In this document: in pieces, positions 282 to 13,185 of the stretch
How positions within the stretch are numbered: the first letter of the stretch is position 1
Layout: each line of letters starts with the position of its first letter
Assembly (NCBI GenBank): GCA_016283355.1
Contig: JAEEMS010000025.1
Span: 1 to 64,000 of the forward strand
From: Elusimicrobiaceae bacterium
GTDB taxonomy: Bacteria > Elusimicrobiota > Elusimicrobia > Elusimicrobiales > Elusimicrobiaceae
Direction of reading: 5' to 3'
Length of the DNA: 64,000 bases
The notes under the pieces: generated by a model
The model's database searches: none
What the model was told of the DNA's origin: nothing
What the model saw: only the letters and a program-made list of their open reading frames with translations
Position numbers and translations under genes: made by a program

Positions 282-329
282 ATATTCTTATAACCTGTAA
301 GACGGGTATGTATTTTGAGAGGGTTTGGT

Positions 330-707
330 ATGAAAAAAATTGTCAACTCATTGCAAGCGCCCCGCGCCATCGGGCCGTATTCTCAGGCAGTGGAAGAGGG
401 CGGATTATTATTCACTTCCAGTTTGTTGCCGATGGACCCCGTAACCGGGGAAATCTATACCGGCGATATTCAAGTGCAAACGGAAATCATTTTAAAGAAC
501 TTGGAAACAATTTTAAAAGAAGCCAACTGTGCGTTAAAGCACGTGTTGAAAACAACCGTTTATATGACGGATCTTACCAAATTCGCGGAAATGAACGCCG
601 CTTATGAAGCTTTTTTTAAAGAAAATCCGCCGGCCCGTTCTACGGTGCAAGTGGCGGCCTTGCCCAAAGGCAGCTTGGTAGCTATCGAAGCGATTGCTAA
701 AAAATGA
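330..707 (+). CDS. ridA: RidA family enamine/imine deaminase
   Basis: This 125-residue protein matches the RidA/YjgF/UK114 family in length and motifs. It starts with an N-terminal block like SLQAPRAIGPYSQA and ends with RSTVQVAALPKGSLVAIEAIA, which carries the family's conserved Arg and Glu. Known family members hydrolyse reactive 2-aminoacrylate-type enamines/imines made by PLP enzymes, releasing ammonia, and act as cytosolic trimers. The ATG at 330 is chosen because GAGAGGG lies 6-7 nt upstream and the protein then begins MKKIVNS, as is typical. The ATG at 315 in the same frame has no such site. The stop codon overlaps the start of malQ (ATGA), so the two are probably translationally coupled. 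Confidence 0.93.
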   Translation: MKKIVNSLQAPRAIGPYSQAVEEGGLLFTSSLLPMDPVTGEIYTGDIQVQTEIILKNLETILKEANCALKHVLKTTVYMTDLTKFAEMNAAYEAFFKENPPARSTVQVAALPKGSLVAIEAIAKK

Positions 708-2284
708 ATATGACCACGCTGCACGACCAAATTTTAAACAGCCGTTTAAACGGTGTTTTGTTGCCGATTTCCGCTATGCGTACCGAGAACGATTGGGGCG
801 TGGGGGATTTCGGTTCTTTGACGCAGTGGTTGCGCTTCTTTGCACAAGAACACATTTCTATTTTGCAAATTTTACCTTTGCAGGAAACAGCCCCCGGTGT
901 AAATTGCCCGTATTCTGCCATGACGGCTTTTGCTACGGACCCGGTTTATATCGATATAGCCCAACTGGAAGACCTTAAAGACAACGCGCCCGCGTGGGAA
1001 TTTATCAACACGCAAAAACATAAAATCGCCCAGTGGAATGCGGCCCCGCGTGCGCCGTTTGCCGAAGTAAAAAAAGCAAAAATGCAAGTATTGTGGCTGG
1101 CGTATCGCCAGTTTTTACGCACGGAAGTGGCATCTAAATCGTCACGGTTTTTAGCGTTTGAGGCCTACTGTGACAATCAATCTTCTTGGTTAAACGGATA
1201 CAAAGTATTCCGTGCCCTTAAAGAATTTTATCATTGGCAAAGTTGGACCGAATGGCCCAGCGAATTGCAAAACTATCACAGCGAGGCCGTCCGTCATTTT
1301 GAACGACAGCACGGCGAGTATATCCAATTTTACGCTTATGTACAATGGGTGCTGGACCAGCAATTACGCGCCGCCAAGGAAGTAGCCAAAGAACAAGGTA
1401 TTTTTATTTTTGGCGATATCCCTTTTGCTACCAATTTGGATAGTGCGGAAGTATGGGCCGAACGGGAAAATTTTCGCATCGGGTGGGAAATCGGCGCACC
1501 GGCGGACCAATTTTCGCAAAACGGCCAACGCTGGGGCTTACCGGCCTATGATTGGAACTATCAACGTGCCCATAATTTTGATTTGTGGCGGCGTAAAATC
1601 CGTCGTGTAACGGAACTGTACGATATTTTCCGGTTGGATCATTTGGTTGGGTTTTTCCGCACGTATGTTTTTGCTCCCGGGCAGGAAAAGGGAGGGTTTG
1701 ATATTGAGGGCGAACAAAACCAAATTGACCGCGGGTATGAATTTTTAAAAATGGTGTTGGAGGAAGCAAACGGGAAATTACCCGTTGGGGAAGATTTGGG
1801 TGTTATCCCCAATTACGTGCGCCGGATGCTTGTGGATATGCGTATCCCCGGTTATAAAGTACTGCGTTGGGAACGGGAAGACAACGGGTATTACCGCGAG
1901 CCGCGTAATTACCCGGTGGCTTCGTTGGCAACCACCTCCACGCACGATACGGAAACGCTGCGCGGTTGGTGGGAAACGATGGATAACAACGAGCGCAAAA
2001 ATATTTGGGAAATGATTTCCGCGCGTAAAACGGATGGAAACGTCCCCTTTACGGTGGATAACCAAGGCGCCATGATCCGCCGTGTGCTTGATTCCAATTC
2101 CGCATTGACGTTATTCTCTTGGCAGGATATCGCCGGTACGTTAGACCGTATTAATACGCCCGGCACGGTGGGGGAGGAAAACTGGACGTACCGCACCGAT
2201 TGTTCCGCCAAAGAAGCCCCGGTAAAATATGAAGTGCAGTTGGCCATGTACCGGGAACTCTTAAAAGAAACACACCGCTGTTAA
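704..2284 (+). CDS. malQ: 4-alpha-glucanotransferase (amylomaltase)
   Basis: This 526-residue GH77 amylomaltase transfers alpha-1,4-glucan segments between maltodextrins and releases glucose, in the cytoplasm. The N-terminal part contains the ENDWGVGDFGSL substrate-binding block. The three acidic catalytic residues are recognisable: D312 in FRLDH (nucleophile), E363 in GEDLG (acid/base) and D415 in STHDTETLRGWW. Length and motif spacing fit bacterial type MalQ (about 500 residues). The start overlaps the ridA stop; a second in-frame ATG at 710 is equally possible. With the glycogen-binding protein at 15.6 kb it suggests alpha-glucan use, but no other mal or glg genes are nearby. Confidence 0.95.
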   Translation: MNMTTLHDQILNSRLNGVLLPISAMRTENDWGVGDFGSLTQWLRFFAQEHISILQILPLQETAPGVNCPYSAMTAFATDPVYIDIAQLEDLKDNAPAWEFINTQKHKIAQWNAAPRAPFAEVKKAKMQVLWLAYRQFLRTEVASKSSRFLAFEAYCDNQSSWLNGYKVFRALKEFYHWQSWTEWPSELQNYHSEAVRHFERQHGEYIQFYAYVQWVLDQQLRAAKEVAKEQGIFIFGDIPFATNLDSAEVWAERENFRIGWEIGAPADQFSQNGQRWGLPAYDWNYQRAHNFDLWRRKIRRVTELYDIFRLDHLVGFFRTYVFAPGQEKGGFDIEGEQNQIDRGYEFLKMVLEEANGKLPVGEDLGVIPNYVRRMLVDMRIPGYKVLRWEREDNGYYREPRNYPVASLATTSTHDTETLRGWWETMDNNERKNIWEMISARKTDGNVPFTVDNQGAMIRRVLDSNSALTLFSWQDIAGTLDRINTPGTVGEENWTYRTDCSAKEAPVKYEVQLAMYRELLKETHRC

Positions 2285-2310
2285 TTTTTATAAGTAGGTG
2301 TTAGCGTTTC

Positions 2311-2340
2311 AACCTCTTTCGTCGTAAAACGGAAGGGGTT
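2311..2340 (+). terminator. possible terminator after malQ
   Basis: Twelve-base arms AACCTCTTTCGT and ACGGAAGGGGTT pair with two G-U pairs around a 6-nt loop. No clean T-run follows directly (GAAAATTTTC), so termination efficiency is uncertain. Confidence 0.5.
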
Positions 2341-2344
2341 GAAA

Positions 2345-2420
2345 ATTTTCTGGGCCTTTTTTACCCTAATTTTCTAGGCCCTTTTTACCCCTTGAAATAG
2401 GTCTTAAGACCCTGGTTTTT
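2345..2420. repeat. tandem CTAGGCC-type intergenic motif, site a
   Basis: Two nearly identical 22-bp copies (2345-2366 and 2369-2390) of the type ATTTTCTRGGCC(C)TTTTTACCC lie 24 bp apart. They are followed by TAGGTCTTAAGACCCTGG (2398-2415), which contains an AAGAC/GTCTT inverted repeat. Read inversely the copies match the CCAAAAGRCCTA-like motif seen in several other intergenic regions. The array lies upstream of the secreted protein gene at 2488. Confidence 0.6.
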
Positions 2421-2476
2421 CCTCTCCTTTTTACTTATAGTATAAGGTAGAAGGATCCGTAAGTAGAAAAGGAGCA

Positions 2477-2547
2477 AGGAGAATAAAATGAAAAAAGTAG
2501 CATTATTATGTATGTGTGTGGGATTGGCTTTGCCGATGTTTGCACAA
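2477..2547 (+). repeat. 71-bp exact repeat, copy 1 (RBS plus signal peptide)
   Basis: The segment from AGGAGAATAAA through codon 20 of the gene at 2488 is identical to 3338-3408. Beyond it the two genes share only scattered residues. Confidence 0.9.
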
Positions 2548-3324
2548 CAGAAACTACAGATGAAAGAAAACATTAAACGCAAGCTTCCGCCGAGCACCAT
2601 TGCCACCGAAATGCCTGTTGGCGAAATGGGTAAGCGCATTTCACAAGGCGGAGAAATGCTTATGATGGTCGACAGATGGTTTAAAACAATAACGCTTGTT
2701 ACGTTTAACGCAGAAGGGGAAGAAATAATTATTGAAAATCCTGCTACCATGAAAGTATTCCTTGAGGGACAGTTGGAAAAAGATGGTCTCTATCTTAGAC
2801 AAATCGGTCCCGATGGCAATTATGCGTACACGAAATTGACTCCTGAAATGGTTAAGGCCTTACTCGTACCACTGATGCGGCCGCGGAAGGGATTCCCCCA
2901 GAAAAAAGCGTCGTTTGGATTTGATGTGTTTTCCTTGCTACTAGATGCGCGACTAAAAGATGAAAGCTGGTTTGAAAGGGTGATGACAGCGTCAGCGACG
3001 GACTTCTCTGAGCATTGGTCAGCAGCGCAGAAAGCCGCGTTGTATGCGGTTGCGGAAGGTGTGTTAACAGTCCAAAATGTTGATGCACAGGACCCTTTGT
3101 TTGCGTTCATGGAAGAGAAACTGGGAAATTACAGCAATTTAGACCTTGCCGATAAAGAAGAATTTTTAGCGGCGCTTGAAGTTTGCCAAGATATAACCCA
3201 AAAAACGATTCAGCAAAGAGAAAGAGAGTACGAAGAATTTGCTATCGAGGATGTGTTGACAGACATAGAAACTTTAAGAAAGGTATTAGAACATTTGGAA
3301 AACGTGGAAAAATCTTTCCAATAA
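2488..3324 (+). CDS. secreted protein of unknown function, family A copy 1
   Basis: This 278-residue protein has a clear signal peptide (MKKVALLCMCVGLALPMFAQ, cleavage expected after the Ala), so it is exported. I do not recognise the mature part. It is mostly helical-looking and charged, with one QKAALYA block (about residue 180) and a CQDIT segment near the C terminus, both echoed in the next gene. SD AAGGAG lies 9 nt before the ATG. The first 71 bp of the SD/signal-peptide region are identical to those of the gene at 3349, while the rest has diverged strongly. The gene probably forms an operon with 3349 (24-nt gap). A TATAGT/TATAAG box around 2438 could be its promoter. Confidence 0.85.
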   Translation: MKKVALLCMCVGLALPMFAQQKLQMKENIKRKLPPSTIATEMPVGEMGKRISQGGEMLMMVDRWFKTITLVTFNAEGEEIIIENPATMKVFLEGQLEKDGLYLRQIGPDGNYAYTKLTPEMVKALLVPLMRPRKGFPQKKASFGFDVFSLLLDARLKDESWFERVMTASATDFSEHWSAAQKAALYAVAEGVLTVQNVDAQDPLFAFMEEKLGNYSNLDLADKEEFLAALEVCQDITQKTIQQREREYEEFAIEDVLTDIETLRKVLEHLENVEKSFQ

Positions 3325-3337
3325 TACTAAAGACCTG

Positions 3338-3408
3338 AGGAGAATAAAATGAAAAAAGTAGCATTATTATGTATGTGTGTGGGATTGGCTTTGCCGATGT
3401 TTGCACAA
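3338..3408 (+). repeat. 71-bp exact repeat, copy 2 (RBS plus signal peptide)
   Basis: Identical to 2477-2547. It covers the SD, start codon and the whole 20-residue signal peptide of the gene at 3349. Confidence 0.9.
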
Positions 3409-4032
3409 GAGAAAACACAGTTAAAAGAACATCTAAAATCTCGGATTGAACACAAGCTAGAACAATACAAACAACCTGTATACGGCGAGCATAGAATAAT
3501 ACCGGACAATGCTGTGATTGAGTCCATTGTAATGGAAATGCCACCTATAAACGTCGAGCAAGCAACGAATCAATCCATAATGAAAGCAAAATGGATAACC
3601 AAAGGTGGTCCTCTGTCAATTCTTGCGAAAATGATAACGATTGATACATTGTTTGTTGGAAGAGATACGTCAGAAATATTGCCTGTTGCTAGAGATGTGT
3701 CAGAAAGGTTGCCTTTTATGATAGAAGAATTTGCACAATCGGAAGAGGTATTGCCTGTGCAAAAAGCTGCCTTGTATGCGTTCACGGAAGTACTGTTAAA
3801 TACTTTGGATCAATATAATTCCGACAATGAAAAAGATGAGGACAGAGAAGCTTATATACAAACCAAAAAAGATAGATTGAACGCTTTGAAAGAATCGTTG
3901 GAAGAGTATAAAGAAGTAGCCCCCGAAGAGAAAGAAGTATTTTCTCAAGCACTTGGAGTTTGCTTCTTAGAAATGGACGATGTCTTAAGGGGAATAATGT
4001 TTTCAATCCCAGATTGGAAAAAGATTCATTAA
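3349..4032 (+). CDS. secreted protein of unknown function, family A copy 2
   Basis: This 227-residue exported protein has the same 20-residue signal peptide as the preceding gene, encoded by identical DNA. The mature part aligns only loosely with copy 1: a short hydrophobic strand (SILAKMITIDTLF versus MVDRWFKTITLVTF), then QKAALYA, and a C-terminal LGVC block. It is rich in Glu and Lys with likely coiled-coil helices. No catalytic motif is recognised. It has SD GAGGAG and ends before a strong hairpin terminator. It is probably a duplicate of copy 1 kept similar only at its 5' end. Function unknown. Confidence 0.84.
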   Translation: MKKVALLCMCVGLALPMFAQEKTQLKEHLKSRIEHKLEQYKQPVYGEHRIIPDNAVIESIVMEMPPINVEQATNQSIMKAKWITKGGPLSILAKMITIDTLFVGRDTSEILPVARDVSERLPFMIEEFAQSEEVLPVQKAALYAFTEVLLNTLDQYNSDNEKDEDREAYIQTKKDRLNALKESLEEYKEVAPEEKEVFSQALGVCFLEMDDVLRGIMFSIPDWKKIH

Positions 4033-4065
4033 AAGAATATTTTCAGTGGAACTTCGCAACAACTA

Positions 4066-4100
4066 AAAACTCCGCGGTTAAAAATCCGCGGAGTTTTTTT
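4066..4100 (+). terminator. intrinsic terminator
   Basis: ACTCCGCGG pairs perfectly with CCGCGGAGT over an 8-nt loop and is followed by a run of seven T. It ends the secreted-protein pair and, being A-rich upstream, may also serve the convergent gene at 4110-4652. Confidence 0.9.
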
Positions 4101-4109
4101 GTGTTCATT

Positions 4110-4652
4110 TTATTTTGTAGCGGGAGTTGTAGAAATTTTTGTTTCCGCGGCGGGTGATTGGGCGGCGGGTGGATTGTCCGGTTGAGGAGTGTTTTCTGTC
4201 GTTGTTTCTTCCGTTTCCGCAGCGCTTACCGGGAAGAGGTTGCCGGCCATTTTTGTAACATTTTCTAACGCGTTGTTATATTCGGCGGTGGCTTGTATAA
4301 ACTGGGCAGTCGGGCGGTTCGTATCAATGTTTTTGGCCATTTCCACTTCCAGTTGTGCTTTTTTATATTCAAATTCCTGGATGGCAAATAATAATTTGAT
4401 GCGGTTGACCAACTTGTCTTTTTCTTCCCCTACTACTACCGGGCACGAAGAAAGCGCTTGGTTTAACGTGGTTAAATCTTGCTCCGCACTGGCGCGGGAT
4501 AATTGCTGAAAAATGGGATTACTTTGCGGTAACCCCGGCACGGAAACCGCTGCCGAACGTGCGGCAGCGTGGTCCGGCAGGAATACGTTTCCCACAACCA
4601 TTCCTACCGCAAATACAACCAATAACGTAAGGACATAAAAAATGTAACGCAT
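4110..4652 (-). CDS. membrane-anchored protein, unknown function
   Basis: This protein of about 180 residues has one N-terminal membrane segment (YIFYVLTLLVVFAVGMVVGNVF) followed by a periplasmic-type region. A helical, Glu/Lys-containing stretch (about 60-120) probably forms a coiled coil. The tail is rich in Pro, Thr, Ala and Glu, as in flexible linkers. I recognise no family. The ATG at 4652 is chosen over an upstream TTG because a perfect TATAAT lies 7 nt before it. That places transcription start at or next to the start codon, and there is no SD. It is transcribed divergently from the gene at 4707. Confidence 0.75.
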   Translation of the reverse strand: MRYIFYVLTLLVVFAVGMVVGNVFLPDHAAARSAAVSVPGLPQSNPIFQQLSRASAEQDLTTLNQALSSCPVVVGEEKDKLVNRIKLLFAIQEFEYKKAQLEVEMAKNIDTNRPTAQFIQATAEYNNALENVTKMAGNLFPVSAAETEETTTENTPQPDNPPAAQSPAAETKISTTPATK

Positions 4653-4659
4653 CAAGTAT

Positions 4660-4665
4660 ATTATA
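4660..4665 (-). promoter_or_regulatory. -10 box, leaderless-type promoter
   Basis: Minus-strand TATAAT, then 7 nt (ATACTTG), then the ATG at 4652. No SD is present. Confidence 0.65.
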
Positions 4666-4683
4666 CAAAAAGCGCGTATTTAT

Positions 4684-4689
4684 TATAAT
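4684..4689 (+). promoter_or_regulatory. -10 box for the gene at 4707
   Basis: TATAAT 17 nt before the ATG at 4707, leaving room for the SD AAAGGAG (4695-4701). It is divergent to the promoter at 4660. Confidence 0.55.
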
Positions 4690-4706
4690 AGAAGAAAGGA
4701 GCATTT

Positions 4707-5273
4707 ATGGCAAAAATTAAATTTGGCAAAGAAGGACATTTGGAACTGGAATTGACCCCATTGACGATTTGGTCCAACCCCGGCAGTGAAGGGGAATTTA
4801 TGGAATACCAACTGGGGCTGACGGTAGAAGGAAAGGAAATTTTCAACCCGGAGATGAAGCCGCTGCTTACCATTGTAAAAGGGGAAGAAGATGAATATCT
4901 TTCCGATTTTATTTTCCGTGCATTACGAGGAGCCCAAGGCATCAACTGGACCCCATTGGAGCCAAAGGCCGTACTTTATATGCAACCGGTGGATCAGATG
5001 ATGTGCTGCGGGTCCAATGCAGCCAAGGCGCCGTATGTGTTGGATATTACGTTGGAGCAAAATATTTTTGCCGGCGATAATAAAGTATTCGGCCCCTATT
5101 CCAATACGGGGATGAGTATCCGTTTTGAAGCTACGGCGCAAAATTGGCATCAGTTCGCAGACGACCTTTATAAAGAAGAAGACGATTTTGATGAAGAAGA
5201 ATTTGACGGCGCAGAATCAGCAGCGGACGCGCCGCGAGACGGAGAGATAGAAATCAACCGCCGCATAAAATAA
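4707..5273 (+). CDS. conserved hypothetical protein with acidic tail
   Basis: This 188-residue soluble protein has strong SD AAAGGAG. The N-terminal half is beta-rich and starts KIKFGKEGHLELELTPL, which resembles WapI-like/immunity-type small beta proteins, but I cannot confirm that family. A Cys pair lies in MMCCGSN near residue 100. The last 35 residues are very acidic (EEDDFDEEEFDG), then turn basic. There is no signal peptide or membrane segment. It is followed closely by the TSCPD-domain gene, so it may be the first gene of a three-gene unit. Function unknown. Confidence 0.78.
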   Translation: MAKIKFGKEGHLELELTPLTIWSNPGSEGEFMEYQLGLTVEGKEIFNPEMKPLLTIVKGEEDEYLSDFIFRALRGAQGINWTPLEPKAVLYMQPVDQMMCCGSNAAKAPYVLDITLEQNIFAGDNKVFGPYSNTGMSIRFEATAQNWHQFADDLYKEEDDFDEEEFDGAESAADAPRDGEIEINRRIK

Positions 5274-5315
5274 TTGGACGCGGTTTACAATAGAAAAGAA
5301 GGAGTGAAGACAAAA

Positions 5316-5570
5316 ATGAAACATTATACCTATTATCCCACGGGCGTATGCTCTGCACAAATTGATTTTGATTTGGATGAAAATAACCGCTTGCACCACG
5401 TGCGTTATACGGGCGGGTGTAACGGCAATTTAAAAGCCATCGGTAAATTGGTGGAAGGGCAAGAAGCCGGGCATATTGCCACATTGCTAAAAGGGAACGA
5501 TTGCGGTGGGCGCGGCACGTCCTGTGCGGACCAACTGGCCCAAGCATTGCAAGAGGCGATAAAAAAATAA
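5316..5570 (+). CDS. TSCPD domain protein (TIGR03905-like)
   Basis: This 84-residue protein matches the small TIGR03905 family, whose members resemble the C-terminal TSCPD domain of some ribonucleotide reductases. Visible motifs are YPTGVCSAQIDF, VRYTGGCNGNLKAIGKLVEG and the terminal GRGTSCADQLAQAL. Three conserved Cys suggest metal or redox binding. The ATG at 5316 is chosen because AAGGAG (about 5299-5303) precedes it by about 12 nt and the protein then begins at the usual family start. It overlaps nothing and is followed after 1 nt by the next Cys-motif gene, so the two are probably co-transcribed and perhaps functionally linked. The biochemical role of the family is unknown. Confidence 0.88.
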   Translation: MKHYTYYPTGVCSAQIDFDLDENNRLHHVRYTGGCNGNLKAIGKLVEGQEAGHIATLLKGNDCGGRGTSCADQLAQALQEAIKK

Positions 5571-5571
5571 T

Positions 5572-6027
5572 ATGACAAAAGGCGAAGCGGCAAAAGAAAA
5601 TTTTTTGAACGGACTGAACTGTGCACAGGCCGTATTGTGTGCTTTTTGCAAAGAAACCGGGCTGGACGAGAAAACCGCTTTGGCGGTATCGGCCTGTTTT
5701 GGCGGAGGCCTGGGCCGCCAGCGCGAAGTGTGCGGTGCCGTGAGCGGGATGTGTATGGCGCTTTCGCTTTTGTACGCTCCCAAAGACCCTTCCAACCAAG
5801 CGGAAAAAGCAGCTTTCTATGCACGCGTGCAAGAAGTGTGCAACCGGTTTAAAAAAGAAAACGGCTCTATTATTTGCCGAGAGCTGTTGGGCTTGCCTGC
5901 CGGGCCCTCTGTGCCGCAACCGCAGGCGCGTACGCCTCAGTATTACGACCATCGGCCGTGCGCGGATAAAGTAAAAAGTGCCGCAGCCATTCTACAAGCT
6001 TACCTTCAAGAAAACCGCCAAAAATAA
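5572..6027 (+). CDS. C_GCAxxG_C_C family protein
   Basis: This 151-residue protein is of the C_GCAxxG_C_C family (PF09719-type). Key motifs are LNCAQAVLCAF near residue 17, the glycine-rich CFGGGLGRQREVCGAVSG near 43-60, and later Cys in EVCNRF, IICRELLG and RPCADKV. The regular Cys pattern indicates a redox or metal site. Members are common in anaerobes and often sit near redox enzymes, but no reaction is established. It lies 1 nt after the TSCPD gene and ends at a strong terminator. Confidence 0.88.
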   Translation: MTKGEAAKENFLNGLNCAQAVLCAFCKETGLDEKTALAVSACFGGGLGRQREVCGAVSGMCMALSLLYAPKDPSNQAEKAAFYARVQEVCNRFKKENGSIICRELLGLPAGPSVPQPQARTPQYYDHRPCADKVKSAAAILQAYLQENRQK

Positions 6028-6054
6028 AAAGCCCCGCAAGGGGCTTTTATTTTG
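6028..6054 (+). terminator. intrinsic terminator
   Basis: AGCCCC-GCAA-GGGGCT followed by TTTATTTT ends the three-gene unit 4707-6027. Confidence 0.85.
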
Positions 6055-6060
6055 TCGGTA

Positions 6061-6096
6061 AAAAGACCTATATGGGGATAGAAAGAATATAGGTCC
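6061..6096. repeat. GACCTATAT inverted repeat, motif site b
   Basis: A perfect 9-bp inverted repeat, GACCTATAT (6065-6073) and ATATAGGTC (6087-6095), is separated by 13 nt just upstream of the MarR promoter. It shares TAGGTCCAAATAACA with the region at 41206-41220. Confidence 0.6.
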
Positions 6097-6105
6097 AAAT
6101 AACAC

Positions 6106-6134
6106 TTGACAAATAAACAATTTACTAGTAAACT
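6106..6134 (+). promoter_or_regulatory. promoter of marR-aas, leaderless type
   Basis: Consensus -35 TTGACA (6106-6111), 17-nt spacer, -10 TAAACT (6129-6134), then 6 nt to the ATG at 6141. Transcription should start at the start codon; no SD exists. Confidence 0.75.
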
Positions 6135-6140
6135 ATTTAT
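6113..6140. promoter_or_regulatory. 28-bp palindromic operator over the marR promoter
   Basis: The half-sites ATAAACAATTTACT and AGTAAACTATTTAT match as inverted repeats at 12 of 14 positions, with a perfect 12-bp core TTTACTAGTAAA. The palindrome covers the spacer and -10 and ends exactly at the start codon, as expected of an autoregulatory MarR operator. Confidence 0.7.
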
Positions 6141-6629
6141 ATGGAAACTATTAAAACCGATTTGCGCTCTTATGGGATTGAACCCCAAAAAGGGCGCGCG
6201 TATGAGAATATTACGTATGTGTTGGCATTGGTGTATAACCGGTTGCAAACGCATGTTGAACAGTACCTGGCCCCGCATGATTTGTCGGCCGTGCAGTTTA
6301 ATTTGCTTATGTTAGCCGCCTATCAGAACGAGGGAAAAGGTATCAGCCAGGTGCAAGCCGCTACGCATTTGATTGCTTCGGCCAGCAATATTACAAAATT
6401 GGTGGAAAAATCGGTGCGGGCCGGGTTGCTCACACGCAAAACCAACCCAAATTCCCGCCGGGAAAACATTGTTTGCATTACTCCCAAAGGCCAGCGTCTG
6501 ATTGACCGCGTATGGCCCGGGTATGACCGGTTAATGCGCTCCCTTACGGAAAAAATACCGGCCAAAAACCGTCCGCAAACGGAAAAAATTTTACAGCATT
6601 GGCTTTTAACATTGCAGGAGGAAAAATAA
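6141..6629 (+). CDS. MarR-family transcriptional regulator
   Basis: This 162-residue winged-helix regulator has a helical N terminus. The recognition region is ISQVQAATHLIASASNITKLVEKSVRAG and the wing is LTRKTNPNSRRENIVCITPKG, in the usual MarR order; the C-terminal helices are for dimerisation. The protein is slightly longer than typical MarR (about 145). It is the first gene of an operon: aas begins 1 nt after its stop. It is therefore likely to sense a lipid or acyl-type ligand and to control acyl-chain handling, in the manner of FabT/FarR-like MarR proteins; that part is inference. The promoter is covered by a palindrome, so negative autoregulation is likely. The start codon has no SD. 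Confidence 0.9.
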   Translation: METIKTDLRSYGIEPQKGRAYENITYVLALVYNRLQTHVEQYLAPHDLSAVQFNLLMLAAYQNEGKGISQVQAATHLIASASNITKLVEKSVRAGLLTRKTNPNSRRENIVCITPKGQRLIDRVWPGYDRLMRSLTEKIPAKNRPQTEKILQHWLLTLQEEK

Positions 6630-6630
6630 C

Positions 6631-9600
6631 ATGATTTCACTTTTTAAAACATTTTTTAACCGTTCGTTTTTAGCGTTGTTTTGTACGCAGTACCTGGGTG
6701 CATTTAACGATAATTTTTTCCGCACCGCTATGGCTACATTTATTACTTATAAAGTAACCACTATGGCGGAAGGGGACAAAGCCGTAATCGTATCGTTGGC
6801 GGTGGCGTTATTTATGTTGCCGTTTTTCTTGTTCTCTGCATTGGCCGGGGAATTGGCGGATAAACTGCGCAAAGATATTTTGATCAAAGCTACCAAGGCA
6901 TTGGAAGTAGTGATTGTATTGTTGGCCGGCGTCGGGTTTTTAACCGCTAACATTGCGCTTTTGCTGGCAGTATTGTTTTTGATGGGAACGCAATCGTCTT
7001 TCTTCGGACCTGTTAAATACAGTATCCTGCCCGACATTTTAGGCAAACAACAACTTATTGCCGGGAACGGTATTATTGAAGCGGGCACGTACGGGGCCAT
7101 TTTGCAGGGAACTATTTTTGGCGGAATTATTATTACACTAAACGAATTTTTGCTGCCGGGAATTATTTTAGGGGTGGCATTGCTGGGGCTTTTGGCCAGC
7201 TTATTACTTCCGGCACAACAACCGGCCAATCCTGCGTTAAATGTAGACAAAAATTTTATCCGCAGTACGTGGAAAAATATGAGCTTTGCCAAACAAAATC
7301 ACGATATCTTCCTGTGTATTTTGGGGATTTCCTGGTTTTGGCTGTTAGGAACGGCGCTTATTGCGCAAATGCCCTCTTTAGCGCATGATATCCTCAGCGG
7401 TACGCCGGGGTTGTTTACGTTTCTGTTGACGCTTTTTTCTTGCGGGATCGGTTTGGGCTCGTTGCTCTGCCAATTCTTGGTCAAAGGGGAAATAACCAGC
7501 AAATACGTGCCGGTCAGTGCGTTAATCATGACGGTTTTTCTAACCGATTTAGCACTTGCTACGGCCGGATATGTGACACCCGCGCAAGCAGTAGATTATA
7601 AAGCATTTTTGCTGACGTTTGCCGGCAAACGCATCACATTGGATTTACTCGGATTTGCGGTGTGCGGCGGCCTTTATGTGGTACCACTTAATGCCATGCT
7701 CCAGTTTTTGGCTACCGGGGATACGCGTTCGCGCGTGATTGCCACAAACAACATTATCAATTCACTCTTTATGGTGTTGGGCAGCGGTTTTTGTGCGTTG
7801 CTGTTGGCCCTGCATTTTACGATTCCCATGGTGTTTGGCGTGATTGCTTTGGCCAACGCACTGGCGGCCATTTATATCTGCGGTCTTCTGCCCCACCACA
7901 TTATCCGCATGATTATGACGCGCGTATTGAATTTGGTATACGGCGTAAAAGTAAACGGGATAGAACATTGGAAAAATTTGCAGGGCAATGCACTGATTAT
8001 TGCCAATCACACGTCGTTTTTGGATGCAGTGTTGCTATGGGTATATATCCCCGGGAATTTGTACTTTGCTATTGATACGTATGTAAGCCAAAAATGGTGG
8101 GTAAAACCTTTCTTGCACTTGGTAAAATATTTCCCGATAGATCCCACCAACCCGATGGCGGTGAAGTCCATTATTGAAGAAGTGAAATCGGGCAAGCGGG
8201 TAGTCATCTTCCCGGAAGGGCGCATTACTACTACCGGGGGATTGATGAAAATTTACCCCGGCCCGGCCATGATTGCCGATAAGAGTAACGCGCAATTATT
8301 ACCTATTTGCTTGGAAGGCAGCCAGTATTCGCTTTTCTCTCGTTTCGGTACACAACTGAAAACGCGTCCGCAAAGTAAAATTACCATTACGATTCAAGCA
8401 CCCAAAACGTTAAAAATTGATGAGAGCGTAAAGGGCAAGGCCCGTCGTTTAGCTGCCGCACGCGGGCTTTACGACATTATGGTAAATATGAAATACGAGG
8501 CGGGCAACGTGACGGAAACATTGTTTGATTCGCTCATTGATGCGTATAAGTTGGTAGGGCGCAAGAAACGCATTATCAATGATGCCACCCGCCACCCGCT
8601 TAATTTCGGTCAATTTTTAACAGCGGTATTTGTACTGGGTAAACAAATTGCCAAGCACCAACGGCCGGGGGAATATGCCGGATTCTTATTACCCAATATG
8701 ACGGCCAGCGTGGTTGCCTTTTTTGGGATGCGTGCATTTAACATTACACCGTGTATGCTTAATTTCTCTACCGGGGTTAAAAATATGCTGGCTTGTTGCA
8801 AAGCGGCTAAAATTTCCACCGTGTTTACTTCCAAACTATTTTTGAAGCAAGGAGAATTATCGGAAACGGCTGCGGCACTCGAGAAGGCCGGGCTGAAACT
8901 GATTTATTTGGAAGACCTTAAAAAACAAATTACACTTTGGGATAAATTCGTAGGGTGGGCTGCTTCCTATTCCCCTCGTCGCTATTACAAAAGAGTGCGC
9001 GGCAGCGTAAGTTCCAAAGACCCGGCCGTAGTATTGTTTACCTCCGGCAGCGAAGGGACGCCCAAAGGTGTGGTGCTTTCACACGAAAATATCCAAGCCA
9101 ACCGCTTGCAACTGCAAAGCATTTTGGATTTTGGTATTAAAGACCGTATGTTTAATGCTATGCCTATCTTCCATTCGTTTGGTTTGACGGCAGGTACGTT
9201 GATGCCGCTGTTGTGCGGGATGCCCGTATTTTTCTATCCGTCACCGTTGCATTACCGTATTGTGCCGGAGTTGATTTACGATAGCAACGCTACCATTATT
9301 TTCGGTACGGACACGTTCTTTAACGGTTATGCCAAAATGGCGCATCCATACGATTTTTACTCGGTACGTTTGGCCGTAGTAGGAGCGGAAAAACTCAAAG
9401 AAGAAACCATCCATAAATATTACGACCAATTTGGTTTGCGCATCATGGAAGGATACGGCGCTACCGAAACGGCCCCCGTTATGGCCGTCAATACGCCTAT
9501 GTATTTTAAGCGCGGCAGCGTGGGGCGGTTGCTGCCCGGGATTGAATATCAGTTGGAAAAAATCTCCGGTGTGGAAGAAGGCGGTAAACTGCTTGTGAAA

Positions 9601-10041
9601 GGCGCGAACATTATGGCCGGGTATTTGCGCGATACCAATCCTGGTGTATTGGAACCGCCGCAAGACGGTTGGTATGACACCGGCGACATTGTGCGCGTGG
9701 ATGAGGACGGTTTTGTGTTTATTTTAGGCCGTGCCAAACGGTTTGCCAAAGTGGCGGGGGAGATGATTTCTCTAACGGCGGTGGAAACGGAAATCAATGC
9801 GTTGTGGCCGGGTAAAATGCATGCGGTAGTGAATATACCCGACGAGAAAAAAGGTGAGCAACTGGTGCTTTTCACTACCGAACCCACAGCACAACGCGCC
9901 GCCTTGCTGGCAGATTTTAAAGCCAAAGGGCTTAGCGAACTGGCCGTTCCCAAAACGGTGCGCATCGTGGAGGAAATTCCGCTGATGGGTACCGGCAAGG
10001 TGGATTATGTAAAATTGAAAGAAATATCATCAAACAGTTAA
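6631..10041 (+). CDS. aas: LplT-Aas fusion: MFS lysophospholipid transporter, acyltransferase and acyl-ACP synthetase
   Basis: This 1136-residue three-domain membrane protein begins with residues 1 to about 420, an MFS transporter of the LplT type (starts FKTFFNRSFLALFCTQYLGAFNDNFFRTA). Residues 430-620 are a PlsC-type acyltransferase with NHTSFLD at 459-465 (HX4D motif) and FPEGR at 527-531. Residues about 640-1136 are an AMP-forming acyl-ACP synthetase with FTSGSEGTPKG (about 803-813) and GYGATETAP (about 941). In known Aas systems, lysophospholipids flipped across the inner membrane are re-acylated with fatty acid activated on ACP. Here all three activities sit in one chain, a fusion known in some bacteria. 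SD GGAGG precedes the ATG. It is co-transcribed with the MarR regulator and followed by the lipid-type genes from 10052. Confidence 0.93.
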   Translation: MISLFKTFFNRSFLALFCTQYLGAFNDNFFRTAMATFITYKVTTMAEGDKAVIVSLAVALFMLPFFLFSALAGELADKLRKDILIKATKALEVVIVLLAGVGFLTANIALLLAVLFLMGTQSSFFGPVKYSILPDILGKQQLIAGNGIIEAGTYGAILQGTIFGGIIITLNEFLLPGIILGVALLGLLASLLLPAQQPANPALNVDKNFIRSTWKNMSFAKQNHDIFLCILGISWFWLLGTALIAQMPSLAHDILSGTPGLFTFLLTLFSCGIGLGSLLCQFLVKGEITSKYVPVSALIMTVFLTDLALATAGYVTPAQAVDYKAFLLTFAGKRITLDLLGFAVCGGLYVVPLNAMLQFLATGDTRSRVIATNNIINSLFMVLGSGFCALLLALHFTIPMVFGVIALANALAAIYICGLLPHHIIRMIMTRVLNLVYGVKVNGIEHWKNLQGNALIIANHTSFLDAVLLWVYIPGNLYFAIDTYVSQKWWVKPFLHLVKYFPIDPTNPMAVKSIIEEVKSGKRVVIFPEGRITTTGGLMKIYPGPAMIADKSNAQLLPICLEGSQYSLFSRFGTQLKTRPQSKITITIQAPKTLKIDESVKGKARRLAAARGLYDIMVNMKYEAGNVTETLFDSLIDAYKLVGRKKRIINDATRHPLNFGQFLTAVFVLGKQIAKHQRPGEYAGFLLPNMTASVVAFFGMRAFNITPCMLNFSTGVKNMLACCKAAKISTVFTSKLFLKQGELSETAAALEKAGLKLIYLEDLKKQITLWDKFVGWAASYSPRRYYKRVRGSVSSKDPAVVLFTSGSEGTPKGVVLSHENIQANRLQLQSILDFGIKDRMFNAMPIFHSFGLTAGTLMPLLCGMPVFFYPSPLHYRIVPELIYDSNATIIFGTDTFFNGYAKMAHPYDFYSVRLAVVGAEKLKEETIHKYYDQFGLRIMEGYGATETAPVMAVNTPMYFKRGSVGRLLPGIEYQLEKISGVEEGGKLLVKGANIMAGYLRDTNPGVLEPPQDGWYDTGDIVRVDEDGFVFILGRAKRFAKVAGEMISLTAVETEINALWPGKMHAVVNIPDEKKGEQLVLFTTEPTAQRAALLADFKAKGLSELAVPKTVRIVEEIPLMGTGKVDYVKLKEISSNS

Positions 10042-10051: not shown

Positions 10052-11368
10052 ATGAAACAAGAAACGAAAGCATTATGTCCCGTTTGCCTAAAAACAATTC
10101 CCGCTGTCAAAGTACAACGGGGAAGCGAAGTGTGGTTGGAAAAAACATGCCCGGAGCATGGGGCTTTTGCGGTGCAAGTGGCCAAAGATGCCGCGCGGTT
10201 TTTTGATAAAACGTATGATGTGGAGGGGAAACCCTTTAACGCGGTAACATCTTTCCACGGAAACTGTGGGGAAGATTGCGGTTGGTGCGACGCACACAAA
10301 CAGCACATTTGTACGGGGCTTATAGAAATTACGCAATCGTGTAATTTAGCGTGCCCTATTTGTTATTTTGGGCAGAAAGCGGCCCATCATATTTCCGTAG
10401 AAGAATTTAAAGCGCGTTTGCAAACGCTGCTTACCGTGGAACAGGGGCATTTGGATGTGCTGCAAATTAGCGGTGGGGAGTGCTTGGTGCATCCGCAATT
10501 TAAGGAAATTTTAGAGGAAGCTGTAAATGCGGATATCGGGCGCATTCTCATTAACACCAATGGATTGAATCTATTAACCGATACCGCTGCATTTGATCTC
10601 ATCCAGCAACACAAAGACCGTGTGGAAATTTATTTGCAATTTGACGGGTTTAATGACGAGGTTTATCAAACATTGCGCGGACGGAAATTATTATCACAAA
10701 AACAAGAAATCCTGCGCCGCCTCAATGAAGCGGAAATCAAAATCTGTTTGGCGGTTACCGTGTATCAAGGGAATTTAAAAGAAATTCCGGCTATTTTGAA
10801 ATTGGCGGTGGAATTAAAACATATTTCCGGCATTACGTTCCAACGGTTGACCAAAGTGGGTAGTGCAACGGGTACAATAATCCCGTCTGTCCTGCAGGAA
10901 GATATTTTGCTGGCCGTTGCGGGTAGTGGATATATGGCATATAAGGATTTAATTCCGTTGCCGTGCTCGCACGAGAACTGCACCAGCTTGGGTTTTTTGT
11001 TTTGCCAAGGGGATAAAGTATACTCACTGGGGGATTACGTAGATTATTCCAAGTGCAAAACACAAATTTCCAACCGGATTGCGTTTGACAAAACAATTTT
11101 GGATTATATGAAGAAAAATGTGTGCAAATGTTTTGTGGGCCGCGTACTGGGCGGCAATTTTATGTTGGAAAAATTGCAGGAGTTTGCCCAAGGCGACGGC
11201 TCTTGCCATAAAGATATGAAAATTGTGCGCATTATTGTTAAAAATTTTATGGATGCGGATACGTTTGATTGGCAGCGTGCGCAAAAATGTTGTACGGGCG
11301 TAAGTGTCGGGAACGGGAAAATAATTCCGTTTTGTGTGCATAATACATTAAAAGGAAAACGAATATGA
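10052..11368 (+). CDS. radical SAM enzyme, tetraether/membrane-spanning lipid synthase-like (MJ0619 family)
   Basis: This 438-residue protein has an N-terminal rubredoxin-like Cys region (CPVCLKTI, then KTCPEHGAF) and a CGEDCGWCDAHKQHIC block. The radical SAM triad follows in ITQSCNLACPICYF, with ISGGECLVHP as the SAM GGE motif. The C-terminal half carries many further Cys (CTSLGFLFC, CKCFVGR, CCTG), enough for extra Fe-S clusters. This order is that of MJ0619/Tes, which joins the tails of two lipids to make archaeal membrane-spanning tetraethers; bacterial relatives are proposed to make membrane-spanning fatty acids. The bacterial function here is inference. It sits 10 nt after aas and overlaps the next gene by ATGA. 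There is no SD; a leaderless promoter lies within aas. Confidence 0.7.
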   Translation: MKQETKALCPVCLKTIPAVKVQRGSEVWLEKTCPEHGAFAVQVAKDAARFFDKTYDVEGKPFNAVTSFHGNCGEDCGWCDAHKQHICTGLIEITQSCNLACPICYFGQKAAHHISVEEFKARLQTLLTVEQGHLDVLQISGGECLVHPQFKEILEEAVNADIGRILINTNGLNLLTDTAAFDLIQQHKDRVEIYLQFDGFNDEVYQTLRGRKLLSQKQEILRRLNEAEIKICLAVTVYQGNLKEIPAILKLAVELKHISGITFQRLTKVGSATGTIIPSVLQEDILLAVAGSGYMAYKDLIPLPCSHENCTSLGFLFCQGDKVYSLGDYVDYSKCKTQISNRIAFDKTILDYMKKNVCKCFVGRVLGGNFMLEKLQEFAQGDGSCHKDMKIVRIIVKNFMDADTFDWQRAQKCCTGVSVGNGKIIPFCVHNTLKGKRI

Positions 11369-11583
11369 CAGAAAACAACAAACATTCAACACAGCAGAAA
11401 CCTTCGCAACAGGCAGAACAAACACAAGGAACCTTACAACCGGGATCTTCGCAGCAACCGGTTCGCGCCCCTGAAAAATCTCGTTCAATTTGGATGCCGA
11501 TAGTGATTGTGCTGCTCATTATAGCGGGGCTTATCATAGCACTCCCGTATTTGTTGCTTTTGGCCTGTATGGTGATGTTCTAA
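11365..11583 (+). CDS. small single-span membrane protein
   Basis: This 72-residue protein has a Gln/Thr/Pro/Ser-rich N-terminal half predicted cytosolic and disordered. A basic stop-transfer patch (PEKSRS) precedes one hydrophobic helix of about 27 residues at the C terminus. Its ATG overlaps the stop of the radical SAM gene (ATGA) and its stop lies 2 nt before the next ATG, so it is embedded in the operon and probably real. It has no recognised family. It may anchor or recruit the lipid enzymes. Confidence 0.7.
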   Translation: MTENNKHSTQQKPSQQAEQTQGTLQPGSSQQPVRAPEKSRSIWMPIVIVLLIIAGLIIALPYLLLLACMVMF

Positions 11584-11585
11584 TT

Positions 11586-12221
11586 ATGCTAGGATACGCT
11601 ATTTGTTCAAGTATTGGTTTGGTGGCGGGGGGAATTATCGCTTGGAAACTACAAATGCCGCGCCCGCCGCAAGCAATGCGTTTGCCCATTTATGTATGTG
11701 CGTTTGTGGGAGCACTGTTGGGGAGCAAAGTACCGATTTGGCTTTCTTACGGGGTGCACGGATATATCATCCAGGGAAAAAGCGTGATGGGGGGAATCCT
11801 CGGCGCTTTTTTGGCCATCAACTTATATAAGACATGTAGCAACAAGGCCGGCGGTTTTGGTGGCCGGTTTGTCATCCCATTGGCGGTAGCGATTGGTTTT
11901 GGGAAAATCGGTTGCTATCTAAACGGTTGTTGCGGGGGAACACTTTGGGTGCCTGTACAGTTGGTGGAAAGTGTTTTTCAATTTGTGACGGCCGGTTGTT
12001 TGTATTTGTTTTACCTCCGCACGAAACGGGCGGATTTGTTATTCCCGGTATATTTACTTGCGTATTTGGGGATGCGTTTGGTAATTGAATTTTGGCGCAT
12101 AGAGCCCCGGGTATGGGCAGGACTGAGTGTCTACCAGTGGTTAGCTATTGCTTTTATTCCGGTATGTATTTTAATTATTCGGAGGCGTACACATGATAAC
12201 GTTGTTGTTGCGGGCAAGTGA
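11586..12221 (+). CDS. Lgt-like prolipoprotein diacylglyceryl transferase family membrane protein
   Basis: This 211-residue polytopic protein has about six to seven membrane spans. It contains SVMGGILGAF and GFGKIGCYLNGCCGG, which match the Lgt family's HGGLIGAF-type loop and its R/N/G signature loop in the GCxxxGCC variant. However, the usual His before GG is replaced (VMGG) and the signature Arg is not evident. It is also shorter than typical Lgt (about 260-290). It may therefore be a divergent Lgt relative using phospholipid as donor rather than the housekeeping Lgt. The ATG at 11586 is chosen because the long upstream extension of the frame would overlap the small membrane gene. Confidence 0.75.
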   Translation: MLGYAICSSIGLVAGGIIAWKLQMPRPPQAMRLPIYVCAFVGALLGSKVPIWLSYGVHGYIIQGKSVMGGILGAFLAINLYKTCSNKAGGFGGRFVIPLAVAIGFGKIGCYLNGCCGGTLWVPVQLVESVFQFVTAGCLYLFYLRTKRADLLFPVYLLAYLGMRLVIEFWRIEPRVWAGLSVYQWLAIAFIPVCILIIRRRTHDNVVVAGK

Positions 12222-13185
12222 GCATGCGCACAATCCTACTCTTTTTCTGGCGGGGATTATACTTGTTTATGTGACGGGGGTAATACTGCTGGCGGCCGTT
12301 GTGTGGAAATTTTACGAGCACCATTACGCACCGCAAGCGCTTGAAAAACAACGCCCTCATTTTTTCTCTACGCGGGAAATGTTGCTTTTGGTCCTTTTGC
12401 TTTTTCCGTGCTGGATTAAATCTTTTGGGCAGGTTTCTTTGCCTAAAGCACCCGGTTATTTTTTCTTTGCGCTGGGCAGTATAGGGCTTTTGTTTGCCAC
12501 CGGGTGGCACTTGTGGGCTAAATTCAATATCGGGCGTTTGTGGTCCGACGGGATAGAAATTAAACAAACCCATCCGTTACGCACTACCGGGGCCTATGCG
12601 TTGGCACGCCATCCTATGTATGCTTCGTTGTTGCTTTGGTGTTGGTGTGGAAGTTTGATAATGGCAAATGCGCTTACATTGTTGTTCGTAAGTGTCGTTT
12701 TTCTGCCCTTGATGATACGCCGTGCCAAAGCGGAAGAACAAGATCTTGTGCAGAAAAATCCGGATTATCTTTTGTACCAAAACAATGTGCGCCGGATGAC
12801 GGTAACGTTGCGCGGCGGTTGGAGTGTGGCCGTGCGGTTGGTGTTATCGTTGGCGTTGTTTTATTTCACGGTAATGCACCAAATCACGTTGGCGGTGTTG
12901 GGCGGACTGGTATTTATCCACTTGTATCTGGGGTATAGTTTGCAACCGGAAAAAACCGCATTTTCCTATCGTTCCAAATCCGGCATGATGACCGTATTTG
13001 GTCTATTGGGTCTTTATGTTCACCCGGCTTTCTTTTACTTTTTCTATGTAATTGTGGCCATGTGTTTGTACGGTTTAAAATGGAACTGCCCTTGCATGTG
13101 GGTATACGAAAAATATCACGGATGCCCCTGCTTTTTATTGTTAAAAAAGCTACATTCAACATGTAGCGTGGAACAAAAAGGATAG
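12193..13185 (+). CDS. isoprenylcysteine/phospholipid-type membrane methyltransferase
   Basis: This 330-residue membrane protein has several spans and the ICMT/PEMT-type SAM-binding signature: HPLRTTGAYALARHPMY (about 133-149) and RAKAEEQDLVQKNPDYLLY (about 177-195). The last third adds a second group of membrane segments and a Cys-rich segment, WNCPCMWVYEKYHGCPCF, near the C terminus. These enzymes methylate lipid-linked or small hydrophobic substrates at the membrane. Perfect SD GGAGG lies 7 nt before the ATG, which overlaps the Lgt-like gene by 29 nt. It ends the presumed lipid operon. The Cys-rich tail is not part of the usual family. Confidence 0.8.
   Translation: MITLLLRASEHAHNPTLFLAGIILVYVTGVILLAAVVWKFYEHHYAPQALEKQRPHFFSTREMLLLVLLLFPCWIKSFGQVSLPKAPGYFFFALGSIGLLFATGWHLWAKFNIGRLWSDGIEIKQTHPLRTTGAYALARHPMYASLLLWCWCGSLIMANALTLLFVSVVFLPLMIRRAKAEEQDLVQKNPDYLLYQNNVRRMTVTLRGGWSVAVRLVLSLALFYFTVMHQITLAVLGGLVFIHLYLGYSLQPEKTAFSYRSKSGMMTVFGLLGLYVHPAFFYFFYVIVAMCLYGLKWNCPCMWVYEKYHGCPCFLLLKKLHSTCSVEQKG

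What the first reader, a model, noticed from the sequence alone, without database searches (positions are those of the whole stretch)
6113..6140. 28-bp palindrome overlapping a leaderless MarR promoter and touching the start codon
A near-perfect palindrome (12 of 14 per half-site, perfect TTTACTAGTAAA core) covers the spacer and -10 and ends at the base before the ATG. It is a probable autoregulatory operator for the marR-aas unit, and a second inverted repeat, GACCTATAT/ATATAGGTC, lies just upstream.
Basis: partly seen in the sequence, partly recalled or inferred. Interest (0 to 1): 0.55.

Follow-up and report, generated by a model that had tools for sequence, protein, structure and literature searches.

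The report
Leaderless repressor gene with promoter operator
A gut bacterium's lipid-recycling gene sits behind a repressor gene whose control site, promoter and start codon are packed into 38 bases; relatives suggest that the start codon replaced an older ribosome-binding site.

Summary
The 28-bp palindrome (12 of 14 pairs) is real. It lies between a TTGACA/TAAACT promoter and the ATG of a MarR-family gene that heads an operon with aas (acyl-ACP synthetase/acyltransferase). The genome is a MAG whose named relatives are gut Elusimicrobiaceae. In 19 loci (own included) the -35-to-ATG block is nearly fixed while the DNA upstream is not. A match (5 or fewer of 22 mismatches) lies within 150 nt of marR at 22 of 23 marR-aas loci; the best match at 20 examined aas loci without adjacent marR has 7-10. 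A sister family has similar half-sites over the promoter of a divergent aas-like gene beside a related marR. This supports a dedicated autoregulatory operator; no wider fatty-acid regulon was found. The second inverted repeat (6065-6095) is unique in the genome and not conserved. In those 19 loci the ATG lies 6 nt after the -10 without a Shine-Dalgarno (SD), so the mRNA is probably leaderless. In four deeper loci with the same promoter an SD lies there, and the ATG comes 12-14 nt later. Trees favour one SD-to-leaderless switch, one of them weakly. Leaderless autorepressors with SD-led enzyme genes are known (acuR-acuI-dddL). Binding, ligand and transcription start are untested.

The parts
6027..6048 (+). 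intrinsic terminator-like hairpin behind the upstream gene, which may isolate the marR promoter
   Evidence: 9-pair stem and T-rich tail
6065..6095 (.). second inverted repeat GACCTATAT-N13-ATATAGGTC; real but not conserved, probably not part of the system
6106..6111 (+). -35 element TTGACA
   Evidence: -35 to -30 at 0.98 mean majority identity in 19 loci
6113..6140 (.). 28-bp palindromic operator, half-site ATAAATAGTTTAC in the symmetric consensus
6129..6134 (+). -10 element TAAACT inside the right arm of the operator
6141..6141 (+). predicted transcription start = A of the start codon (7th base after the -10), leaderless mRNA
   Evidence: inference from the fixed 6-nt gap without SD in 19 of 19 close loci (row L014 read by eye)
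6141..6629 (+). MarR-family regulator, 162 aa, probable autorepressor
   Evidence: weak Pfam hits below the curated cut-offs, NCBIfam hits below their cut-offs, AlphaFold model pLDDT 86.6 and Foldseek matches to MarR-family structures
6631..10041 (+). Aas: acyl-[ACP]--phospholipid O-acyltransferase, 1136 aa (MFS + acyltransferase + AMP-binding), SD AGGAGG, starts 1 nt after the marR stop
   Evidence: NF005291 1520.8 bits, cut-off 1349; Pfam; SD
10052..11368 (+). radical SAM protein; possible further gene of the operon, or under an own promoter-like site (TTGAAA-18-TAAAAT, 7 nt before the ATG)
   Evidence: seen behind aas in 3 of 19 named relatives, some of which are cut short

Best explanation
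The palindrome is the operator of the MarR-family protein encoded right behind it. A MarR dimer (perhaps two) bound over the spacer, the -10 and the start point would block RNA polymerase and so repress marR-aas, including its own gene. Transcription would start at the A of ATG 6141, giving a leaderless mRNA: marR would be translated weakly from a 5'-terminal AUG, while aas, with an SD, would be translated well. The cell would thus keep little repressor relative to enzyme and respond quickly when a ligand, most likely a fatty-acid, acyl or lysophospholipid compound handled by Aas, releases (or strengthens) binding. Shown by sequence: palindrome, promoter, spacing, conservation, co-occurrence with marR, gene order, SD on aas. 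Inferred: binding, repression, transcription start, leaderless translation, ligand. The confidence below is for the autoregulatory operator; I put the leaderless start at about 0.75 by itself and leave the kind of ligand open.
For: (1) In 19 close loci (the window's own, its second copy and 17 others, protein identity 66-81% to the window) mean majority identity is 0.98 (-35 box), 0.89 (spacer), 0.96 (-10), 0.98 (last six bases) and 1.00 (ATG), against 0.60 at -50 to -36 and 0.40-0.42 at -100 to -51. (2) Of 25 orthologous marR loci in 24 genomes, 24 have a match with 0-5 of 22 mismatches within 150 nt upstream of the start. For 23 it lies at the promoter of marR itself; in L028 (G067) it lies over the promoter of a divergent gene. 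In L026 (G068) the best match (5 of 22) lies about 735 nt upstream, before another gene. (3) In 90 family genomes the site is almost private to this locus: 29 sites at up to 3 mismatches, 20 at this marR, 1 at the divergent gene of G067, 1 at a marR remnant (G050), 2 at a second marR family, 5 others, of which four lie inside ORFs and one was not fetched; reversed-pattern control 7 (context). (4) aas with intact adjacent marR: match of 5 or fewer mismatches within 150 nt of marR at 22 of 23; aas without adjacent marR: 0 of 20 examined (best 7-10), nine of them close relatives. Fisher 22 of 23 vs 0 of 9 gives p about 4e-7, not corrected for relatedness. (5) In a sister family (G100, G101, G126) a related marR (32-38%) is divergent from an aas-like gene (29-34%), and similar half-sites lie over that gene's TTGACA-17-TAAACT promoter. 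(6) Leaderless: gap -10 to ATG is 6 nt in 19 of 19 (18 by script, L014 by eye), SD of 4 nt or more at marR in 0 of 19, at aas in 17 of 18. (7) MarR fold: model pLDDT 86.6; among the top Foldseek hits are DNA-bound MftR, MepR and MarR.
Against: No binding, transcript or translation data. The palindrome arms show no excess covariation: 206 paired cells in 19 distinct sites, shuffle mean 205.7, reached by 1035 of 2000 shuffles; variation is mostly one-sided in the left arm, so selection for symmetry as such is not shown. One leaderless locus (L019, G063) has only 8 of 14 pairs, and three (L015, L017, L019) miss the 3-mismatch pattern (4, 5 and 4 mismatches). The right arm doubles as the -10, so part of its conservation is promoter conservation. 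The Pfam MarR hits are below the gathering score. Only 24 of 90 family genomes have this marR, so the regulation is dispensable. L018 (G075) has marR and operator but another gene behind it. L021 has no SD at aas.
Confidence: 0.8

Rival explanations
1. The palindrome is bound by another regulator (global or heterologous), and MarR itself acts elsewhere.
For: A second, more distant MarR family (28-31% identity, L029-L033) has similar half-sites at its own promoter, so the motif is not strictly private to one protein.
Against: The five genomes with the second family have no hit of this family, and of the 24 with this family only G067 has a further hit (31%, not examined); in the window's genome the only matches at E <= 0.001 are the two aas-linked ones (more distant MarR proteins were not sought). 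The site is present with marR and absent near aas when marR is absent, apart from one locus with a decayed marR (G050).
Confidence: 0.08
2. The conserved block is only a strong promoter, and the symmetry is accidental A+T richness.
For: The right arm contains the -10; no excess covariation of the arms.
Against: Spacer and post-10 bases that a sigma-70 promoter is not known to need are fixed or nearly so (TTT at -20 to -18 100%; ATTTAT at -6 to -1 95-100%). Similar half-sites recur in the sister family, and at a second marR family in a different register to the -10. The block is lost at aas genes without marR.
Confidence: 0.07
3. Activation rather than repression, or a co-repressor mode as in FabT, with acyl-ACP strengthening binding.
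For: [quoted passage not shown]).
Against: A site over the spacer, -10 and start point fits repression; the ligand mode is open.
Confidence: 0.2
4. marR is not leaderless: transcription starts further upstream, or translation starts inside the frame.
For: No transcript data; the wider gap statistics for this group are small and rough.
Against: No conserved promoter further upstream (40-42% identity), no SD, ATG conserved in 19 of 19; invariant residues begin at position 11 and no conserved alternative start precedes them.
Confidence: 0.2

Closest known systems
acuR-acuI-dddL operon of Rhodobacter sphaeroides (PMC3017554; passages read)
   Same: [quoted passage not shown] inverted-repeat operator at the promoter; mRNA begins at the repressor AUG; enzyme genes have SD sequences, and the repressor is translated at a lower level
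   Different: TetR family, acrylate, other phylum; shown by 5' RACE and mutants. Here MarR family, aas, no experiment, and SD-led relatives are seen
FabT of Lactobacillales (PMC13046290 part 1 of 3, PMC9083066 passages)
   Same: MarR-family protein, first gene of a lipid operon, autoregulated through a promoter palindrome
   Different: Regulates fatty-acid synthesis genes at more than one promoter; here one dedicated site before marR-aas. The FabT operator sequence was not compared in a call
Leaderless repressor genes lambda cI and Tn1721 tetR (named in PMC3017554)
   Same: Repressors with leaderless mRNA
   Different: Different protein families, phage and transposon genes
TANNNT-led leaderless genes of bacteria (PMC3160421; passages read)
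   Same: -10-like signal about 12 bp before the start codon, no SD; SD-to-TA substitution between orthologues measured genome-wide
   Different: Statistical survey; the term Elusimicrob does not occur in its main text; no single traced locus in the passages seen

Membership tests
MarR family of transcription factors | winged-helix MarR domain | tested here: met
   Pfam MarR_2 E 5.6e-5 and MarR E 2.1e-4, both below the gathering score; NCBIfam MarR-type models, below their cut-offs; profile against the PDB finds 32 distinct sequences at E <= 1e-8, the named ones mostly MarR-family; Foldseek top hits are MarR-family structures
MarR family of transcription factors | binds a palindrome at its own promoter | not testable with these tools
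   site and conservation only
Aas (acyl-ACP synthetase / acyltransferase) | whole-length equivalog score | tested here: met
   NF005291 1520.8 bits against cut-off 1349
FabT-type regulators | operator at several fatty-acid synthesis promoters | tested here: not met
   In 90 genomes at up to 3 mismatches: 24 of 29 sites at a marR-type gene or its remnant, four of the other five inside ORFs, one not fetched
FabT-type regulators | acyl-ACP as co-repressor | not testable with these tools
   needs protein and ligand
Leaderless autorepressor operon (acuR type) | transcript starts at the repressor AUG | not testable with these tools
   geometry only: 6 nt from -10 to ATG in 19 of 19
Leaderless autorepressor operon (acuR type) | no SD at the repressor, SD at the enzyme gene | tested here: met
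   SD of 4 nt or more: marR 0 of 19, aas 17 of 18

The most novel reading that the evidence does not exclude
A traced change of translation mode at one locus: an SD-led repressor gene became leaderless because its SD, which sits at the fixed transcription start behind a conserved promoter-operator, mutated into the new start codon (AAGGAG to ATGGAA). This turned the short leader into codons, dropped the old start and lowered repressor output relative to the SD-led enzyme gene. Promoter and operator stayed nearly unchanged on both sides, so relatives form a natural before-and-after series.
Probability: 0.5. Interest if true: 0.6.

Novelty: new member of a known kind. Interest (0 to 1): 0.42.

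Why it matters
It gives a mostly uncultured gut group a concrete, testable regulator-operator pair for membrane-lipid recycling. It also offers orthologous promoters that differ mainly in whether the start point carries an SD or an AUG, a natural series for asking what is gained when a repressor becomes leaderless.

Tried and rejected
Wider regulon: the pattern AATARTTTACTAGTAAAYTATT with up to 3 mismatches in 90 family genomes gave no site at other fatty-acid genes. Of its five unassigned sites, four (G019, G074:C1, G079, G084) lie inside ORFs and one (G034:C128) was not fetched; the reversed-pattern control gave 7. The two 1-mismatch core hits in the own genome lie inside ORFs (DnaA-like in L003, S1-like in L004, my reading) and were not followed.

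Second inverted repeat: not conserved (by eye), unique; rejected as part of the system.

Covariation of the arms: no signal. A more distant rumen group (L081-L088, 46% MarR): no such palindrome among the best 22-mers printed, and a DtxR-like gene (my reading), not aas, behind marR where the locus shows it. Genome-wide leaderless class: suggestive only. Promoter-to-ATG gaps of 4-8 nt are 25 of 62 listed sites in four genomes (p about 0.003; 0.009 without the two marR sites). These are any ATG, not proven starts, some sites are counted twice, the listing was cut, and I left out the rows of G004 (whose repeated hits are not gene starts) and the partial G026 rows. SD at one of the first ATGs was found for 42 of 81 and 76 of 140 ORFs, with uncertain starts.

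Polarity: the leaderless rows are one side of a branch at 99/96 in the first MarR tree (own N-terminal columns included), 96/96 without the first ten columns, 98/94 and 100% of bootstraps in the MarR+Aas tree (18 leaderless and 5 SD rows), but only 63/89 and 56% when the long row L028 is left out of the MarR tree. Of the nine rows labelled SD, L028 has only AGG, the three sister-family rows were labelled by eye, and L026, L028 and those three do not have this promoter directly before marR. Gap-free alignment to the SD form holds for L025 (G071); the nearest SD rows G062/G030 need a 2-nt indel (by eye).

Literature: searches listed no paper whose title or abstract start names this operator or marR-aas pair; only the papers named in Closest known systems, PMC9031893 and PMC10783764 (passages) and PMC4965119 (outline) were opened.

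Full report
What is there. The palindrome at 6113-6140 is as described: 12 of 14 pairs, perfect core TTTACTAGTAAA. A sigma-70-type promoter TTGACA (6106-6111), 17 bp, TAAACT (6129-6134) runs through it, and the ATG of a 162-aa MarR-family protein follows at 6141. Only 5 of 63,973 28-bp windows in the 64 kb are as symmetric; three of the other four are G+C-rich inverted repeats. A terminator-like hairpin at 6027-6048 follows the gene before. Behind marR, one base after its stop, comes a 1136-aa Aas that passes the NCBIfam equivalog cut-off (1520.8 against 1349).

Where it comes from. The genome (G000, 1.40 Mb in 29 contigs, 96% complete) has its nearest named relatives among Elusimicrobiaceae or Elusimicrobium MAGs, several of rumen and gut origin by title. 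Of 90 family genomes, 29 have a MarR hit at E <= 0.001; 24 of them carry this orthologue (25 loci, because G000 has two), the other five a second MarR family in front of what looks like an outer-membrane efflux gene (my reading of the N-terminus, for the three of the five looked at).

Conservation. In 19 close loci (the window's own included) the block from the -35 box to the ATG is nearly fixed, while DNA 51-100 bases upstream is at 40-42% majority identity. The gap from -10 to ATG is 6 nt in all 19 (18 by script; L014, with TTGAAA and TAAAGT, by eye). Within 150 nt upstream of the start, 24 of 25 orthologous marR loci have a match to the 22-base operator pattern with 0-5 mismatches. The 25th, L026 (G068), has one with 5 mismatches about 735 nt upstream, before another gene of the same direction. 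In L028 (G067) the site lies over the promoter of a divergent gene that resembles that other gene by eye.

Dedicated, not a regulon. The 22-base pattern with up to 3 mismatches finds 29 sites in 26 of 90 genomes: 20 at this marR, 1 in front of the divergent gene of G067, 1 at G050, where marR is reduced to weak traces but the operator stands before aas, 2 at the second MarR family, and 5 others. Four of those five lie inside ORFs, one was not fetched; the reversed pattern gives 7. Among aas loci with an intact neighbouring marR, 22 of 23 have a match of 5 or fewer mismatches within 150 nt of marR (19 of 23 by the stricter 3-mismatch pattern). Twenty aas loci without adjacent marR were fetched, and their best matches have 7-10 mismatches. 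Nine of these are close relatives, from genomes without any hit, one (G055) with a C-terminal marR remnant, and two (G036, G035) nearly the same sequence. Some of the other eleven are second aas copies in genomes that have marR elsewhere. Other aas hits without marR, mostly fragments, were not fetched.

A deeper relative. In another family of the order, three genomes have a 32-38% identical MarR divergent from an aas-like gene (29-34% identity; Aas residues 10-469 in L094, 13-469 in L095, 10-217 in L093, where the locus ends). The half-sites ATAGTTTAC..GTAAACTAT (one half altered in G126) lie over that gene's TTGACA-17-TAAACT promoter. This suggests that the pairing of MarR, motif and aas is older than the family, unless it was transferred; there the motif sits at aas itself.

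Leaderless start and its origin. In the 19 close loci no SD of 4 nt or more precedes marR, whereas aas has one in 17 of the 18 of these loci that have aas (14 of 18 with 5 nt or more). With the start point expected about 7 bases after the -10, the mRNA should begin with the AUG. In four deeper loci with the same promoter-operator (L023, L024, L025, L027; promoter of L023 by eye) that position instead holds or precedes an SD (AGGAG, AGGAGGT, AGGAG, GGAGGT), and the ATG comes 12-14 nt later. The leaderless start region and that of L025 align without gaps over 36 bases (19 identical for the window, 20 for another leaderless row), the new ATG standing on the AAG of AAGGAG. The leaderless rows fall on one side of a branch with support 96/96 (MarR, first ten columns left out) and 98/94 (MarR+Aas), but only 63/89 in one reduced tree. 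With the outgroup rows not leaderless in this way, the simplest reading is one switch from SD-led to leaderless; the exact mutational path is inference.

Mechanism. Most likely MarR represses by covering the spacer, -10 and start point, and a lipid-derived ligand of the Aas pathway changes its affinity. The closest experimentally known design is acuR-acuI-dddL, where the repressor mRNA starts at its AUG and the enzyme genes carry SD sequences; there the repressor fusion was expressed at about 7.5% of the next gene's fusion in acrylate-grown cells (PMC3017554, passages). FabT is the closest MarR-type lipid analogue (PMC13046290, first part; PMC9083066, passages), but it regulates more than one promoter, which I did not find here. 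The AlphaFold model (pLDDT 86.6, pTM 0.77) matches MarR-family structures, among them DNA-bound ones; the ligand cannot be told from this.

Caveats. No experiment. The arms show no excess covariation, and L019 has only 8 of 14 pairs. MarR hits in Pfam are below the gathering score. The second copy in G000 (contig C13, 77% MarR identity) may be a duplication or a mis-binned contig of a related species: C13 also repeats RidA, MalQ and other window genes and parts of contig C12 at 75-81%.

Noticed in passing
G000 contig C13 (L035, L119) against window 300-10041 and contig C12: RidA, MalQ, TSCPD, C_GCAxxG, MarR and Aas of the window recur on C13 (77-95% protein identity), and parts of C13:8704-16048 match C12 at 75-81% DNA identity: segmental duplications or a mis-binned contig.
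   Followed up: partly
G004, 82 sites; loci L129-L136: A near-identical promoter-like cassette TTGACATCG-T(11-13)-GCTACATTTTATTTAATG recurs 82 times (up to 1 mismatch) in one genome and 36 times in G029 (1-3 in four others, 0 in the other 60 of 66; the reversed control hits the same cassettes, 69 times in G004). In eight fetched loci it precedes an SD and a start codon; the one long frame read (L133) is prepilin-like. The poly-T spacer suggests promoter phase variation.
   Followed up: partly
L029-L033: A second MarR family (28-31% identity) has similar operator half-sites (best matches 4-5 of 28 mismatches, in L031 in another register) at a different position relative to its promoter, and also a 6-nt gap from -10 to ATG in 5 of 5.
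   Followed up: partly
window 10052-13185: Behind aas lie a radical SAM protein (TrsS/Tes-like, below cut-offs) and two genes that look like an Lgt-like and an isoprenylcysteine-methyltransferase-like protein (my reading); the three follow aas also in L062, L063 and L066 (3 of 19 named relatives, some loci cut short) and lie upstream of marR in L065.
   Followed up: partly
L018 / L072 (G075): Operator and leaderless marR are kept, but a KAS III (FabH)-like gene follows marR in place of aas (my reading of the N-terminus).
   Followed up: no
L104 (G073): Upstream of a close aas without marR lies a divergent 207-aa gene that looks like a TetR-type regulator (my reading).
   Followed up: no
window 31046: A PlsY-like gene (by its N-terminus, my reading) also has a promoter-like site 7 nt before its ATG and no SD, so leaderless genes may be a class in this group.
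   Followed up: no
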